This document shows, piece by piece, positions 48,793 through 64,000 of a DNA stretch of 64,000 nucleotides (the first letter of the stretch is position 1; each line of letters starts with the position of its first letter). The position numbers and the translations under genes were made by a program. The stretch comes from Microvirga sp. KLBC 81 (GTDB lineage: Bacteria > Pseudomonadota > Alphaproteobacteria > Rhizobiales > Beijerinckiaceae): NCBI RefSeq assembly GCF_003075415.1, contig NZ_QDAH01000004.1:124001-188000 (forward strand), in the 5' to 3' direction. The notes under the pieces were generated by a model. It did no database searches and was not told the DNA's origin. It saw nothing but the letters and a program-made list of their open reading frames with translations.

Positions 48793-49977
48793 ATGAAGCC
48801 TTCACTCATCCTCGCTGTGTCGGGAATTGCAATGCTCCTAGCGTATCCGACATCATCACACGCACAGGGGGCAAGCCTTAGACAGCAATGCATTCCGGAC
48901 GTCCCCGACGTTTCAAGGTACGCGAACTGCGGCCTGCAGGTGGTGCGAGGACACGAAGTATGCCGGTGCGCAATCCTCCCCCAGGCACAACGCACGACTA
49001 CCCGACAGCTCGACCAAGATGCCAAATTTACAAGCCTGACGGAGGGCGTGCCCAGGCGTGATGGTGCGGTTGGCCATTCCGTCACTCTTATCCCGGTTAA
49101 TCCGTTGCCGCCCCCCACCTGTCTGCAAAGCGGTTGGATCAATCCCGCAACTGGGGTGGAGAGCTGCTCGAACGACAGCGACCGTGGCACTGACAGGGCC
49201 AGCAACGACAGAGGAGGCTCCGGTGGCGGTGGCTCGGGTGGCTCCGGTAGCGGTGGCAAGGGCGGTGGTGGCTCCGGCGGGGGTGGCACAGGCAGCGGTG
49301 GTTCTGGCGGAGCTGGTTCCGGTAGTGGTGGCACTGGAGGTGGCACGGGTGGTGGCGGCTCCTCGGGTGGAGGCTCTGTCGGTGGTGGCTCATCCGGCGG
49401 GGGCTCATCCGGCGGTGGCTCCTCGGGTGGTGGATCGTCGGGTGGAGGCTCCGGCGGTAGCTCTGGTGGCGGCGGATCCTCGGGTGGTGGATCGTCGGGT
49501 GGAGGCTCCGGCGGTAGCTCTGGTGGCGGCGGATCCTCGGGTAGTGGTTCCTCGGGTGGCGGCTCTGGCAGCGGCTCTGGCAGCGGCTCCTCGGGTGGTA
49601 GCTCCGGTGGCGGCGGCGCCTCGGGCGGCGGTTCCTCGAGCGGTGATTCCTCCGGTGGCGGCTCATCCGGCGGGGGCTCTGGCGGTGGTGGGAGCAATAG
49701 CGGTCCCGGCAACGGCAACGGCAACAACGGCAATCCCGGCAACGGCGGAGGAAACACGGGCGGGTCCGGACCAGGCACTGGCAATGGTGGCACTAACAAT
49801 GGCGGCGGCAACGGCGGCGATGGCACCGGCAATGGTGGCACTAACAACAGCGGTGGGAAGGGCAGTAACGGCAACGGCAGCGGAGGCGCCCCTCCTGGCA
49901 CGGGCGGCCTTGCAAATAGCTCCCAGGGATCTGGCAATGGTGGCGGTTCGGGCGGAAGAGGCGGCAGAGATCGCTGA
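48793..49977 (+). CDS. Glycine-rich secreted protein
   Basis: 394 residues: signal peptide (about residues 1–24, ending SSHAQG), then a domain of about 110 residues with six cysteines (RQQCIPD, YANCGLQ, HEVCRCA, PPTCLQSG, VESCSND), then about 250 residues of Gly/Ser repeats (GGGSSGGGSSGG type) turning to Gly/Asn repeats (GNGNGNNGNPGN). The ATG at 48793 has GGGGGAG just upstream. The tail suggests a flexible surface or matrix protein. No family recognised; homologous collapse in assembly of the repeats is possible. Confidence 0.75.
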   Translation: MKPSLILAVSGIAMLLAYPTSSHAQGASLRQQCIPDVPDVSRYANCGLQVVRGHEVCRCAILPQAQRTTTRQLDQDAKFTSLTEGVPRRDGAVGHSVTLIPVNPLPPPTCLQSGWINPATGVESCSNDSDRGTDRASNDRGGSGGGGSGGSGSGGKGGGGSGGGGTGSGGSGGAGSGSGGTGGGTGGGGSSGGGSVGGGSSGGGSSGGGSSGGGSSGGGSGGSSGGGGSSGGGSSGGGSGGSSGGGGSSGSGSSGGGSGSGSGSGSSGGSSGGGGASGGGSSSGDSSGGGSSGGGSGGGGSNSGPGNGNGNNGNPGNGGGNTGGSGPGTGNGGTNNGGGNGGDGTGNGGTNNSGGKGSNGNGSGGAPPGTGGLANSSQGSGNGGGSGGRGGRDR

Positions 49978-51780: not shown

Positions 51781-51959
51781 CATAAGATCATAGCTCAATG
51801 CTCATCGCCGCAGCGCGGCTAAGGCGCTGTACCTCACCTGCGTCAAACAATCTCCACCATCGGCAACCGCTCCGGCTCGGCCTTGTGTCGGGGAAGACGG
51901 GCCGCCAGCACAGCCGCGATCGGCCCCGACTTCATGGCAAGAAATCTGCCCGCCAGTCC

Positions 51960-52280
51960 TCAGCATCGATGGACACGAACCCGCTGGTTCGGACCGACCA
52001 CATAGCTTTGGACCGCGCAGCCAGGACGATCAGCCCGCTGCGGGAGTGCCGGGAGAACTGTGCCAGTCACATCGACATCCCGCGGTGCGATATTCACGTT
52101 AGTCTCGCGTGGCCAGATTTGGGCGGTCGCTGGGACGGGGGTTCCATCTGGGTAGCGCAGCACCGGGTCGACGACTGTTCCATCCGGATTGCGAAGGATC
52201 TGATCGGCCTGAGCCAGCACCGCCTCGGGCAGAGCTGCCCCAAGAGCCAGAAGACCGAGAAGCAGCATGCGGTTGAGCAT
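51960..52280 (-). CDS. Small secreted protein, C-terminal VRVHxC family
   Basis: 106 residues with a signal peptide (about residues 1–23, ending EAVLAQ). The mature part includes DPVLRYPDGTPVP and ends with RDVDVTG, CAVQSYVV and VRVHRC. The gene at 57840 ends in the same way (DVDVTG, CTTRTYTV, VRVHAC), so the two make a small family in this region. The two C-terminal cysteines could form a disulfide. Function unknown. Confidence 0.65.
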   Translation of the reverse strand: MLNRMLLLGLLALGAALPEAVLAQADQILRNPDGTVVDPVLRYPDGTPVPATAQIWPRETNVNIAPRDVDVTGTVLPALPQRADRPGCAVQSYVVGPNQRVRVHRC

Positions 52281-52501
52281 GGGTTATCTCCCGTCAGAAA
52301 GCCCCTGAAGAAAACGGAAGAACAGGGCTGCCAGTTCATCCGTGGTTAGCCGTGCCAGGATCGCCCCGCTGCGGTCTGGCAGCAGGACAAAGGTTGATCA
52401 GGAGGCCAAGAACTTCAGCAGCTTGATCGCGGCTGTCAGCAACCGCACTGCCAACACGCTTGGCCAGATAGAAGCTGACCTTTGGCTCAGAGGACGTGAG
52501 C

Positions 52502-52735
52502 TGGCTCGCCAAGTGCTACCTCGTTCTGCACCAGGTCGACCCGGAGTAGGACATCCGGCGCTTTTACTCCCTCAGGATCGAGCGGGATCTCTTCGGGACC
52601 GTGCGCCTAGTGCGCAACGGGGACCGGATCCGCACCAACGGGCAGGAGTTGGTTGAGATCTTTGACGAGGAGGCCGGCGCGGGGCTGGAGATCTTGGCAC
52701 AGGCCAAGTGGCGACGGGGCTATCGGGACCTCTGA
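52502..52735 (+). pseudogene. WGR domain protein, broken
   Basis: Reading LVLHQVDPE, a TAG stop at 52547–52549, then DIRRFYSLRIERDLFG, VRLVRNGD, VEIFDEEAGAGLEIL and AKWRRGYRDL before a TGA. The pattern is that of the short WGR domain proteins found beside many Rhizobiales genes (RFYALSIEPTLFG … RRGYRDL). The WGR motif itself is altered, so this is a relic. Confidence 0.65.
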
Positions 52736-52777
52736 TTTCACACCGCGGAGTGCCCGCTATCGACTCATTCCGGGCAT

Positions 52778-53153
52778 TTAGTTGGTTGTGTCGAGCCAGT
52801 CTTTAAGCCAGCTCTCCAAGCTGGGATCAAGATCAGTGAACGCCTCCTCGATGGTCAGTTCATCGTCGTAGTAATAGTCATTGAACGCTACGATGACGCC
52901 GCGTTCAAGGTCGTATGAGGCAGGGCCGACATTGTGGGTCAACGGCAAGAGATGCGGCGGCCAGGCAGCTTCCCCGGTGTAACCGGGGCCGCGACGGCGA
53001 AGGTCGTCATATTCCAGACCGATGCGCTCCAGCGAATAAAACCCTGGCCCGTGCCGGGGCCGAAACCCCATCAGCGATCGAAGAGAGCTGTCGTAAGTCA
53101 TGCGGGATCGGCCTGCCGATCTTCTCCTCGATCACATCAAAGCCAGTTTCTGT
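52778..53153 (-). pseudogene. SMI1/KNR4 (SUKH) family protein, frameshifted
   Basis: On the minus strand, TGFDVIEEKIGRPIPHDLRQ and SIADG in one frame are followed, after a shift near 53090, by HGPGFYSLERIGLEYDDL, YDLERGVIVAFNDYYYDDE and the end DPSLESWLKDWL. The order fits a SUKH domain protein, a superfamily that includes many immunity proteins against toxins. The last 107 codons from an ATG at 53101 form an open frame that might still be translated, but without the N-terminal part. Confidence 0.55.
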
Positions 53154-53584
53154 CGCAGGTGGCGCAAGAGGGGAGTTGTTCGTGTCCTCACTCGACGCGC
53201 TGAGCCATCCGTCGGCTCGCGTGACATGCATGGGGCATCTTCCGACCCCAGCGTTCCATTTGCTCGGCCGAGAGGCGAACGGAGTTCGGCGAACCGGGGC
53301 TCTCCAAGTCAAAGAGCTCAGCGAGCTTATCAGGATCATCTACGACGCCGACAGGCTCGCGCTTCGGCGCAGCGCTCCGTCGACGCGGGTCCTGGATACG
53401 CAGCTTGATGGAGGAGATGAGTTCGGGTGAGAGGCTTGGGCACATTTTTCATTCTGCTTGCTCAATGGGCGAAAGCAAGATGCAACGGCAGCGCAGTAAC
53501 TGTCTCGTAACCACAACTTGAAGCGACCCTGATCCAATCCAGGCATGCGGCGTTCTCCGTCTGCTTGAACGGGGAGGACTGCCC
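53154..53584. other. Gap, nothing recognised
   Basis: May contain the original N-terminus of the decayed SUKH gene on the minus strand (an open frame continues to 53445) but I cannot align it. Confidence 0.4.
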
Positions 53585-53708
53585 ATGACCATTCTCGATC
53601 CGATCACCGGAAACCTCGTCACCATCGACACCTCGATCAGACCACGTCGCTAAGGCGCTGGAGGCCATCGCCCAGACGAAGCGGTGGCAGGGCTACCGGG
53701 ATTTGTGA
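53585..53708 (+). pseudogene. WGR-type gene remnant, second copy
   Basis: A short frame MTILDPITGNLVTIDTSI with a good ribosome-binding site (GGGGAGG) stops at 53651–53653. A shifted frame then reads VAKALEAIAQTKRWQGYRDL with a TGA, which matches the end of the WGR remnant at 52502. It looks like a fusion of deletion ends. Confidence 0.5.
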
Positions 53709-53749
53709 TGGCTTACATTCCAACGCCCATTGTGCCGCAGGATAGCAGT

Positions 53750-54124
53750 CTATTTATTTCTGCCACCGCCGTTACCGCTGTTGCCACCCCCGCCGCCATT
53801 CCCATTGCCGTTGTTGCCGCTACCGCCGTTGCCGTTGCCGCTGTTGCCTCCGCCGCCCCCGTTGCCATTGCCGTTGTTGCCGTTGTTGCCGCCAGTACCT
53901 CCAGCGCCGCCGTTGCCCCCCGGGCCTGCGGGCGGCCCGCTGGAGAAAGCGCCACTGATCGCAGTGTTCGCTTGCTGCCACTGGGCTGCAAGCTGAGTGC
54001 CAGTCGCCGCGATGGAGATCAGCGCCGCGCCCGCGATCAGGCCGAGCAAAAGCGAATACTCAACCATTGCCGCGCCGGCATCATCCCGAACGACATGCTG
54101 CCAGAACCGCCCCCGTGGCCCCAT
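53750..54124 (-). CDS. Flp-type pilin with a Gly/Asn-rich tail
   Basis: 124 residues. The N-terminal part has the type IVb pilin signature GAAMVEYSLLLGLIAGAALI, where a prepilin peptidase would cut before the Met/Val-Glu-Tyr helix. Residues 66–124 are low complexity (GGNGGAGGTGG, NGNGNGGGGGNSG repeats). Flp pilins are normally 50–70 residues, so the tail doubles the length. The start at 54124 has AGGAG in front. No Tad assembly genes lie in the window, but a TadE-like gene is at 62803. Confidence 0.75.
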   Translation of the reverse strand: MGPRGRFWQHVVRDDAGAAMVEYSLLLGLIAGAALISIAATGTQLAAQWQQANTAISGAFSSGPPAGPGGNGGAGGTGGNNGNNGNGNGGGGGNSGNGNGGSGNNGNGNGGGGGNSGNGGGRNK

Positions 54125-54508
54125 TCCTGTCTCCTGTCGATGTTGTCCAACTATTAGTGACAGCGTTCCTATCGAGCCGCGAGCGATCAAGCGGAGTAAT
54201 CACGCGGGGTGAGCCTTGTACCGCCCGCCTCGCGCGAGGCGGGTACGCCGTTGCATTCCACAACGCTGATTACCCGCAAATTGAGAAATAACCCATAAGG
54301 TCCAATATGGAACCTGAAAAAGCGTATTCGTGAAGTCTTCGCGGCGGCTTATGGAACGCGCCGCGCCCATTCAGTGAAACCGGCCCTGGTGGAGGCCGCG
54401 GCGCGCGATACTCGTTACTGCTTTCGCGTCAGATGCCGAAATGCTGCTTGAGGAGTTGGATTGGACGGTGCGCACCACCGCGTTCCGCTTCCGGACAGGA
54501 GTTAACCT
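54125..54508. other. Divergent promoter region with a 20-bp palindrome
   Basis: Between the leftward pilin gene and the rightward gene at 54509. It holds the palindrome CCCGCCTCGCGCGAGGCGGG at 54224–54243. A short frame around 54290–54440 has no recognised relatives. Confidence 0.5.
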
Positions 54509-57839: not shown

Positions 57840-58175
57840 TCAGCAGGCATGAACGCGAACTGTTGCTCCAGAGAGCACGGTGTACGTCCTCGTCGTGCAC
57901 GCAGGGCGCGGGAGTGCATTGATGGCGGGAGGCGCTGCGGCTTCGGGAACAGCCTCCAACGAGGGGTCGAGTGCGCCTGTGACATCAACATCCTGTTGCG
58001 GAGGGAGGGGGAGTTCAGGTTCTGCTTGGGTCGGTGATGAGGCCGCTGTGGCAGGAGGGATGATTGCCTCCATAGGAGGATCGACCCAGAGGCGCCGCTC
58101 CTTGGCAACGGCGTGCAAGGACGGAGTCATCAGACAAAGGAAACACGCCGCAACGGTGCGCAACTTGATCGGCAC
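57840..58175 (-). CDS. Small secreted protein, C-terminal VRVHxC family (paralogue)
   Basis: 111 residues from a GTG at 58175 with AGAGGAG eight bases upstream. Signal peptide (KLRTVAACFLCLMTPSLHA), a Pro/Ala/Glu-rich middle, and a C-terminus with QQDVDVTG, CTTRTYTV and VRVHAC. It shares that end with the protein at 51960, and both are leftward genes in this region. Function unknown. Confidence 0.6.
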   Translation of the reverse strand: MPIKLRTVAACFLCLMTPSLHAVAKERRLWVDPPMEAIIPPATAASSPTQAEPELPLPPQQDVDVTGALDPSLEAVPEAAAPPAINALPRPACTTRTYTVLSGATVRVHAC

Positions 58176-58580
58176 TTTATCAGCTCCTCTAGCGCTATAA
58201 CGTGGTGAGCTGTGCTTCGGTTTCTGCGGCTGTACTATTGTGTCGGCCGGCGGAATAGGCACTTCATCCGCGATGGCATCAGGTCTGCCATATGTTTCGT
58301 AGCGTTTTACTGCAATGGCAACGGCACGCCTGGTTGGCGATCGTCCAGAACTGCGTCGCAGCCTTATAGACCGCGCGAAAACGTCAATTTGTTTTAAGGA
58401 CCAATCGACGGTTGCGCGTTTGTGGCTAGCATGGCTCCTGTCGATCAGGCTGCCACCTCACGCGCCGCTTGCAGGTGCCAGCCCACTTGTGGCTACTCCG
58501 GAAGAAGCCATCGGTCGTCTCGGTGATCGCTTGCGGCCCTCTGACGGCCCGATATGCTATCAGGCATATTGGGGGGCGAA
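58176..58580. other. Gap, nothing recognised
   Basis: Likely promoter DNA for the genes on both sides. No frame with family features. Confidence 0.4.
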
Positions 58581-62802: not shown

Positions 62803-63447
62803 TTAGGTCCCCACGCCTGGTGGTCCGAACGACTCGCTCGTCAGCCGCGTCGTGGCTGGGGTGTAGAACCCATCGGGCTGGCCGCTGCACTCAGGGGGTG
62901 GGGGTGGGTTGATGAAAGCCGGAATGAAGCCGTCGAGGAACGTGAACTGAAGCCGTTTGCAAATTGTCACCGTGACCCGCACCGGCGGACCGCCGGGCCG
63001 CCCCACGAAGCCAAGGGCGTATTCTGAGGAATCGAACGTCTGATAGGTGACAGTGACCTCGCTGGCTTGCAGGGTGGGAAAGGCCCGTTGCATCTGCGGT
63101 ATGATCTGGGAAAAATCGCAGCCGACGGTTCCTGACTTGCAAATGTAGGATGTGCCGGGGGCAGGCTTGCATCCTCCCGCCACAATCTCGCAGCTCTCTC
63201 CAATGGTATCTGGTACCCACCATCCGATGCTTGCCAGATCTGTTCGAAGAGTTGTGGACACAGGCTGGTTAACGACTGCCCATCGGGCGCCGAGTTGAGC
63301 CGCCTTGGTGGCGGCATTCGCTTGGAACAGAAACAGCCCTATCTCGATGGCCCCCACGGTTAGTAACAGGACAAGCGGGAGCACAATAGCCATTTCGACC
63401 ATTGCCGCGCCCGCCGTGTCGCGAAGCGTCATTCTGATCTGTCGCAT
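62803..63447 (-). CDS. TadE/TadG-like pseudopilin
   Basis: 214 residues. The N-terminus RDTAGAAMVEMAIVLPLVLLL is a pseudopilin-type leader and hydrophobic helix as in TadE; the body has several Cys (GESCEIVAGGCKPAPG, CKSGTVGC) and ends in a Pro/Cys segment. GGGGA lies six bases before the ATG at 63447. TadE/F/G proteins accompany Flp pili, so this may work with the pilin at 53750, although the rest of a tad locus is absent from the window. Confidence 0.8.
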   Translation of the reverse strand: MRQIRMTLRDTAGAAMVEMAIVLPLVLLLTVGAIEIGLFLFQANAATKAAQLGARWAVVNQPVSTTLRTDLASIGWWVPDTIGESCEIVAGGCKPAPGTSYICKSGTVGCDFSQIIPQMQRAFPTLQASEVTVTYQTFDSSEYALGFVGRPGGPPVRVTVTICKRLQFTFLDGFIPAFINPPPPPECSGQPDGFYTPATTRLTSESFGPPGVGT

Positions 63448-64000
63448 TCTGATCCCCAGCACTTTCCACGTAGGAAAGCATGCTCAGAGAGCAGTTTCCA
63501 GCGCACTACCCCATTCGATCAAGAGGCTAATTCTTATGAGGCATTCACGCGACCATCGGGCGTATCAAAGGTGCCACCAGTACATTCCCGACCCGATGGC
63601 ACCCTCCGGCATCGGACGTTACCTCGGGGGATCAGCAGTCAAAAGCATTTTGCCTGAGGACCAGCATTGCCCTAATCAGTCCTGATCCTGAACCAGTGAC
63701 GCTTACGTTCATCCAGTTACAGCATCGGACCCACAAGTGGATTTGCACTTTTGGGGCTCATCCGATGCTTTCTCCTTGAATGAGAGCATCGGCACAGGAG
63801 CTTGCCCGCGTGACCATGTCTTCATTCGCCGACAGCCAGTGCTTTGCGGTTGAGGCGCCTCATCCCCCAAACGGAGCGGGGCACGCCCTGGATTGTTGGG
63901 ACAGTGATCGTTGTGCAGTAACGGAGTGCTGGGTGCTAAGGCCACCTCCTCACTGGATGTAAGCGCGCTGCTGACGTGCATTGAGCGCGCGCCTACGCGA
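63448..64000. other. End of the window, no gene seen
   Basis: Contains a short family B repeat (63721–63791). Frames up to 126 codons exist but show no ribosome-binding sites or family features. Confidence 0.4.
63721..63791. repeat. Palindromic repeat, family B, short copy
   Basis: AGCATCGGACCCACAAGTGG … TTGGGGCTCATCCGATGCT then CTTGAATGAGAGCATCGG. It lacks the GTGCGGAAAAGTGG part. Confidence 0.8.

What the first reader, a model, noticed from the sequence alone, without database searches (positions are those of the whole stretch)
53750..54124. Flp pilin fused to a Gly/Asn-rich tail
The normal pilin part is followed by about 60 residues of GN/GG repeats, doubling the protein. The glycine-rich protein at 48793 ends with a similar Gly/Asn section. 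Such a tail on a pilin could coat the fibre or allow cross-linking. It may also be an artefact of a frameshift into a low-complexity frame.
Basis: partly seen in the sequence, partly recalled or inferred. Interest (0 to 1): 0.65.

Follow-up and report, generated by a model that had tools for sequence, protein, structure and literature searches.

The report
Tad pilin with glycine/asparagine-rich tail
A soil bacterium encodes a tiny pilus building block whose usual helix is followed by a long, probably floppy glycine- and asparagine-rich tail; the tail is a genuine part of the protein, and a second group of bacteria carries similar proteins with even longer tails, so it may be a way to coat an otherwise bare fibre.

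Summary
The ORF 54124-53750 (minus strand) is an Flp-like Tad prepilin (leader, GAAMVEY motif, hydrophobic helix) followed in frame by 62 residues, 34 Gly and 17 Asn. It is not a frameshift. A second copy on another contig of the same genome keeps the tail in frame (ending GGGKNK for GGGRNK, one 3-nt indel), and the Microvirga arabica ortholog has a shorter Gly/Ser/Asn tail. Between the two copies tail changes are mostly silent (dN/dS 0.12; random placement gives so few amino-acid changes in under 0.1% of trials). In both species the gene lies 4.6-12 kb from cpaA of the same Tad operon, which has its own short Flp. Other Flps read here are mostly 37-60 mature residues. The exception: 6 of 28 genomes of an unnamed alphaproteobacterial genus carry Flps with 150-179-residue Gly/Ser/Asn-rich tails; a small tree of the helices rejects one shared origin with the Microvirga ones (AU P 0.01, 54 columns). 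Best reading, inferred: a tailed pilin joins the short one in the fibre and displays a disordered brush on the shaft. Cleavage, assembly and function are untested. New variant of a known kind.

The parts
53750..54124 (-). tailed Flp-like prepilin gene, 124 aa plus stop
54074..54124 (-). leader, residues 1-17, predicted to be cut after Gly17 at GAAMVEY
   Evidence: sequence; motif GXXXXEY as given in PMC10934763; cleavage not tested
53939..54073 (-). mature pilin part, residues 18-62, one predicted helix
   Evidence: AlphaFold helix 4-61; Flp_Fap residues 12-55
53753..53938 (-). Gly/Asn-rich tail, residues 63-124
   Evidence: composition; kept in frame in the C1 copy; no predicted structure, pLDDT blocks 48-62
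54131..54135 (-). AGGAG, likely ribosome-binding site, 6 nt before the ATG
   Evidence: sequence; AGGAG also before the start in the C1 copy and in M. arabica
51960..52280 (-). 106-aa secreted-looking protein, also duplicated beside the C1 copy of the pilin (85% identical)
48793..49977 (+). GlyR: secreted-looking protein with a Cys-containing N-terminal part and a long Gly/Ser/Asn tail
62803..63462 (-). TadE-like minor pilin of the adjoining Tad operon (the rest of the operon lies beyond the window's right end)
   Evidence: Pfam TadE 46.7 bits

Best explanation
It is an extra, divergent Flp pilin of a Tad (type IVc) pilus. Most likely the prepilin peptidase CpaA cuts it after Gly17, the helix of about 45 residues packs into the Tad fibre beside the operon's short Flp, and the C-terminal 62 residues, which have no place in the helical core, project from the shaft as a disordered, nearly uncharged, hydrated Gly/Asn brush that changes what the fibre sticks to or bundles with, perhaps including the Gly/Asn-rich GlyR protein encoded 3.8 kb away. 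Shown here: the gene, the motif, the in-frame tail in two copies and (shorter) in a second species, protein-level constraint on the tail between the two copies, a place near one Tad operon in both species, and a separate group of tailed Flps in another genus. Inferred: cleavage, incorporation, surface display and any binding.
For: Flp motif and helix; second copy with the same tail and M. arabica ortholog with a shorter one; tail dN/dS 0.12 against 0.69 for residues 1-62 and 0.39 for the neighbouring 106-aa protein, simulation P 0.0004-0.0009; 12 kb and 4.6 kb from cpaA of the same Tad operon in the two species; pilin C-terminus outward in the solved fibre (PMC11067988); KilP of Myxococcus modelled with its C-terminal region covering the fibre (PMC12075869); tailed Flps in 6 of 28 genomes of another genus.
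Against: Flp_Fap score below the curated cut-off for all three Microvirga tailed pilins (22.1, 17.6 and 31.8 bits). Rare: 2 of 48 Microvirga genomes. The C1 copy has no tad gene in the 37 kb examined. The M. arabica tail is only 28 residues. Constraint rests on one pair of copies, and repeat slippage could add to the silent excess. No expression or pilus data; the tree does not group the three Microvirga tailed pilins, though it does not reject that (P 0.38).
Confidence: 0.5

Rival explanations
1. It is a minor or adapter Flp, used in few copies at the pilus tip or base, the tail being a flexible linker or docking segment there and not a coat along the shaft.
For: It is divergent from the operon's own Flp, stands apart from the operon core, and lies 8.7 kb from tadE. 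Flp adapters KilK and KilO are known in the Myxococcus Kil system (PMC12075869, passages).
Against: KilO is 59 aa in that paper; nothing here ties the tail to TadE or TadG. Not really tested.
Confidence: 0.25
2. The tail is a by-product of in-frame repeat slippage in G+C-rich DNA with no specific function, tolerated because it hangs outside the fibre.
For: Repeat periods of 15 and 33 nt; higher silent divergence in the tail than in the rest (dS 0.51 against 0.11); tail length differs from 28 (M. arabica) to 62-63.
Against: Few amino-acid changes for the number of nucleotide changes; same end in both copies; tails of similar make-up in another genus.
Confidence: 0.15
3. The protein is not put into pili but stays in the inner membrane, or is secreted, with the tail in the periplasm or outside.
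For: Divergent helix; the C1 copy is not beside tad genes.
Against: Cleavage motif with the Glu and Tyr that hold the solved fibre together is kept (PMC11067988); orphan Flp genes away from the operon are known, e.g. smc02446 of Sinorhizobium (PMC10934763).
Confidence: 0.08
4. Frameshift or assembly artefact in a low-complexity stretch.
For: Other frames are open through the repeat.
Against: Second copy on another contig with the tail in the same frame and a like end; ortholog with a tail in the same frame; codon-position pattern of changes.
Confidence: 0.02

Closest known systems
Flp/PilA pilins of Tad (type IVc) pili, Pfam PF04964; solved fibres 8u1k and 8u2b
   Same: Leader, GXXXXEY motif, single hydrophobic helix.
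   Different: Known ones are 50-80 aa in all (PMC10934763, passages) and end soon after the helix; this has 62 more residues of Gly/Asn-rich sequence and a sub-threshold helix score.
KilP of the Myxococcus Kil system (PMC12075869, passages)
   Same: A longer Flp whose C-terminal region is modelled as covering the surface of the fibre.
   Different: There the region is a second helix with charged residues, which unfolds in the modelled fibre; here it is an uncharged Gly/Asn repeat. KilP is the major pilin; the role here is unknown.
KilK and KilO, Flp adapter pilins (same paper)
   Same: Extra Flps besides the major one, needed at the tip.
   Different: KilO is 59 aa; no low-complexity tail is described in the passages I saw.
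Orphan Flp genes such as Sinorhizobium smc02446 (PMC10934763, passages)
   Same: Flp gene outside the assembly operon.
   Different: 57 aa, no room for a tail.
GlyR family of Microvirga (unnamed; window 48793-49977)
   Same: Secreted-looking proteins with long Gly/Asn-rich tails, one encoded 3.8 kb (here) and 8 kb (M. arabica) from the pilin.
   Different: N-terminal part is a Cys-containing domain, not a pilin; most copies are not near tad genes.

Membership tests
Flp/Fap pilins (Tad pilins, PF04964) | Prepilin motif GXXXXEY before a hydrophobic stretch | tested here: met
   G-AAMVEY-SLLLGLIAGAALI
Flp/Fap pilins (Tad pilins, PF04964) | Profile score over Pfam's curated cut-off (32.2 bits) | tested here: not met
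   20.7 bits whole protein, 22.1 without the tail; C1 copy 17.6, M. arabica 31.8. Hence called Flp-like; helices of five of the six tailed pilins of the other genus pass (41.7-51.5) and one has 31.9
Flp/Fap pilins (Tad pilins, PF04964) | Single alpha-helix | tested here: met
   AlphaFold helix 4-61, mean pLDDT 70.9, pTM 0.34; a prediction only
Flp/Fap pilins (Tad pilins, PF04964) | Small size, 50-80 aa | tested here: not met
   124 aa; size range from PMC10934763
Flp/Fap pilins (Tad pilins, PF04964) | Same genome has a Tad machine | tested here: met
   Tad operon on the same contig, orthologous to that of M. arabica
Flp/Fap pilins (Tad pilins, PF04964) | Found in the assembled fibre | not testable with these tools
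   needs purified pili
TadE-like minor pilins (PF07811) | Match to the TadE model | tested here: not met
   no TadE match for the pilin at E up to 1, while the neighbour at 62806-63462 scores 46.7 bits
Frameshift artefact | Relatives end near residue 65; stop lost by an indel | tested here: not met
   C1 copy 123 aa with the tail, M. arabica 89-90 aa with a shorter one; more distant Flps do end near there

The most novel reading that the evidence does not exclude
Tad pilins lack the globular domain with which other type IV pilins present a surface. Some alphaproteobacteria have made up for it, more than once, by adding a long disordered Gly/Asn/Ser spacer to an extra Flp copy; in the other genus seen here the spacer ends in a basic cluster or a pair of cysteines in all six cases. 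The fibre would then be a copolymer of short and tailed pilins whose shaft carries a tunable brush. Tailed Flps would be a recurrent, so far unnamed way to equip Tad pili.
Probability: 0.3. Interest if true: 0.75.

Novelty: new variant of a known kind. Interest (0 to 1): 0.55.

Why it matters
Tad pili are widespread and built from some of the smallest pilins, and how their bare helical shafts gain adhesive or protective properties is not well explained. A pilin with a long disordered tail offers a simple test: remove the tail alone and ask what the fibre loses. Tails of like composition on two groups of Flps that a small tree keeps apart hint at selection and not accident. My ten searches of the held paper library turned up no description of Gly/Asn-tailed Flps; the terms were narrow and that library lacks most subscription papers.

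Tried and rejected
Frameshift artefact: contradicted by the C1 copy, the M. arabica ortholog and the codon-position pattern. Covalent cross-linking through Cys, Tyr or Lys: no Cys, no Tyr, one Lys in this tail. N-X-S/T sequons: none seen by eye in the tail (sequence).

Long tail as an ordinary feature of Flps: in the class search (289 genomes, 127 with a match; its list of rows was cut) I fetched every listed row with an open frame of 81 aa or more, and four rows: 59 stretches. The 64 motif-bearing proteins parsed have mature lengths of 30-73; the 30 is cut off by the end of its stretch. The longest low-complexity ends were Thr/Ser-rich (G726, 72 mature residues) and Ser-rich (G402, 60); the 73 and 70 of L160 are not low-complexity. 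One search added short Gly/Ser/Asp/Lys-rich ends in G1266 (64), G1228 (60) and G990 (69). So short low-complexity ends are not rare. This census is biased: PF04964 in the default search does not find this window's pilin in its own genome.

The scan of genome contigs with the single protein found nothing; with the alignment it gave 25 loci, of which only M. arabica is tailed. Plasmid collection: no match for this pilin; the helix of one tailed pilin of the other genus matches 27 plasmid records, all under 60% identity, whose tails were not read.

GlyR tied to Tad genes as a rule: not borne out. 6 of 63 GlyR rows lie on one contig within 20 kb of a cpaC homolog, four of them within 2 kb; but 18 of 20 stretches around GlyR genes show no Tad gene with the Microvirga queries, and the other two were put in because they were known to have one. 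Two of the 20 are short contigs (5 and 6 kb).

One origin for all tailed Flps: rejected by an AU test, P 0.01, on 54 columns with long branches, with the group named after the sequences were seen and with G1329 missing because my motif filter had skipped it.

Not done: no search by fold (a lone helix would match anything), no second structure job, no dN/dS in the other genus, no Pfam scan of the tad operon outside tadE.

Full report
Where it is. The genus is taken to be Microvirga: same-genus genome G005 has the contig that the public record NZ_JAFBID010000023.1 of Microvirga arabica SV2184P represents (same 76,236 bases, same match start). The contig carries a Tad operon orthologous to that of M. 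arabica, so it fits the genus.

The gene. On the minus strand, an AGGAG 6 nt before the ATG at 54124 heads a 124-aa protein. It begins MGPRGRFWQHVVRDDAG / AAMVEYSLLLGLIAGAALISIAATGTQLAAQWQQANTAISGAF, with a leader and the GXXXXEY motif of Tad pilins (motif as given in PMC10934763, passages). Pfam Flp_Fap matches residues 12-55 at 20.7 bits, below the curated 32.2. In the PDB by sequence, Tad pilins 8u2b and 8u1k match weakly (E 0.021 and 0.091), behind a phage-type tail protein at 0.014. Residues 63-124 are 34 Gly and 17 Asn of 62.

Is the tail real? A second copy lies on contig C1 (288720-289088; 123 aa; 86% identical) with the same tail, one codon shorter, ending GGGKNK where this one ends GGGRNK. 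The M. arabica ortholog is 56-57% identical over the helix and goes on in the same frame into a 28-residue Gly/Ser/Asn end. Between the two copies, Nei-Gojobori counts give 5.0 synonymous and 10.0 non-synonymous differences for residues 1-62 (dS 0.11, dN 0.076, ratio 0.69) and 17.0 and 8.0 for residues 63-124 (dS 0.51, dN 0.061, ratio 0.12); the neighbouring duplicated 106-aa protein gives dS 0.23 and ratio 0.39. In codons 59-124, 29 changes fall at codon positions 4, 7 and 18 and alter 11 residues; 29 changes placed at random alter 18.4-19.2 on average and 11 or fewer in 0.035-0.09% of 20,000 trials, depending on the share of transitions. So the tail DNA has turned over faster than its surroundings while the protein stayed Gly/Asn-rich. 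Slippage among in-frame repeat units (periods 15 and 33) could add to the silent excess, and only one pair of copies is at hand.

Neighbourhood. Just beyond the window's right end the contig carries tadG, cpaA, a cpaD-like gene, cpaC, a short Flp (48.5 bits), cpaB, cpaE, cpaF, tadB, tadC and tadD. These names are my reading of the sequences and their order, borne out by tblastn to an orthologous set in M. arabica but not by a Pfam scan, except tadE in the window and the Flp. The tailed pilin lies 8.7 kb from tadE and 12 kb from cpaA. In M. arabica it lies 4.6 kb from cpaA of that operon (CpaC 68%, CpaF 89% identical), again with a separate short Flp. Both regions also hold small secreted-looking proteins ending in VRVHxC and a GlyR gene; the M. 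arabica GlyR runs off its contig. The C1 copy stands beside a copy of the 106-aa protein, with no tad gene found in the 37 kb examined.

How common? Of 48 Microvirga genomes, this one included, 13 match the pilin part at E 0.001 or better, in 17 rows: 3 are tailed (two here, one in M. arabica) and 14 are ordinary short Flps. A cpaC at least 69% identical occurs in 8 of 48; in the six besides these two, motif and tblastn searches of 40 kb around cpaC found no tailed Flp, though one short Flp (G041) ends in about a dozen Gly/Ser/Ala residues. In the family, 298 genomes gave 41 rows; of 29 loci not from this genome I could read 28, none over 59 mature residues; one (L053) was unreadable and 10 further rows came without loci and were not read. 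With the tailed alignment as query, 397 genomes of the order and 398 of the phylum (draws that overlap and leave out M. arabica) gave matches over the whole model only for the two copies here.

A second group. The phylum search gave one other match through the tail without a stop, model positions 13-115, in alphaproteobacterial genome G1289. It is an Flp with a 163-residue Gly/Ser/Asn-rich tail, 0.8 kb from a short Flp-like gene. A search of its family (62 genomes, 51 with a match) shows five more with long frames, all in the same genus: 6 of 28 genomes of that genus. Of the 34 other genomes of the family none has a stop-free frame over 133 aa at a match; most of those were judged by frame length and not read. 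All six tailed ones were read. Their tails have 150-179 residues, 25-53% Gly, 9-24% Asn, 9-29% Ser; four have two Cys, near the end, and four have 6-12 Lys/Arg in the last 20 residues. Their N-terminal parts score 31.9-51.5 bits against Flp_Fap, five above the cut-off. On a tree of 35 helices and 54 columns, five of the six (G1329 left out by a filter slip) form one group (98/94) among the short Flps of their family, while the Microvirga ones fall with Microvirga and related Flps. One clade of all tailed Flps is rejected at P 0.01. With so few columns, long branches and a group chosen after the fact, this supports separate origins without proving them. No tad gene was recognised in the 20 kb around the G1289 gene with the Microvirga queries, so its link to a Tad machine is unknown.

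Mechanism. In the solved Caulobacter Tad pilus the 45-residue mature pilin is one amphipathic helix, N-terminus at the centre and C-terminus outward, with the motif's Glu and Tyr in the bonding network (PMC11067988, passages); both residues are kept here. AlphaFold gives a helix over residues 4-61 (pLDDT blocks 74-97) and no structure in the tail (blocks 48-62), with pTM 0.34. If the protein is assembled like that pilin, the tail should be on the outside. The tail has no Cys or aromatic residue and almost no charge, which suits a hydrated spacer or brush, or weak multivalent contacts with other Gly/Asn-rich proteins, better than covalent cross-links. That GlyR is such a partner is a guess from neighbourhood and composition. 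The rival that it is a few-copy adapter pilin, like KilK and KilO of Myxococcus (PMC12075869, passages), is open.

Papers. I saw passages only, of PMC12918737, PMC10934763, PMC11067988, PMC12075869, PMC7762298, PMC3189940 and PMC5760752; the others only as search listings.

Verdict. It is a new variant of a known kind, made more interesting by a second group of tailed Flps.

Noticed in passing
window 48793-49977 (+); L217-L228: GlyR belongs to a Microvirga-wide family: 35 of 48 genomes, 63 rows. The 12 loci read show a signal-peptide-like start, a conserved Cys-containing part (QQCVPAV...NCRLRVV.GQEVCRCAI) and a Gly-rich tail, several with GNDxDGND..GDGTDxDG stretches that resemble calcium-binding repeats (resemblance recalled). 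Four copies lie within 2 kb of a cpaC homolog.
   Followed up: partly
window 51960-52280 (-) and 57840-58262 (-); L025, L116, L125, L126: Two small secreted-looking proteins with a common C-terminal pattern (C..Y.V..G..VRVH.C); relatives lie near Tad loci in M. arabica, G018 and G046. No Pfam or NCBIfam match.
   Followed up: partly
window 51897-54236 against L023 9660-12661: The pilin, a 97-bp piece and the 106-aa gene occur in both places on the same relative strand but in rotated order (pilin-piece-106 here, 106-pilin-piece on C1), as after a tandem duplication and loss or a circular step.
   Followed up: no
G000:C4, G000:C78, G000:C50: The genome seems to hold three Tad loci: the one at the window's right end, one with a 46% CpaC on C78, and one on C50 beside another canonical Flp.
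   Followed up: no
L160 (G974:C7:74049-75529): Three tandem Flps in 1.5 kb, two of which run at different points into unlike ends that are not low-complexity, as if frameshifted.
   Followed up: no
L268-L272, L267: All six tailed Flps of the unnamed genus end in a basic cluster, a pair of cysteines, or both, after the Gly/Asn spacer: a possible binding tip.
   Followed up: partly
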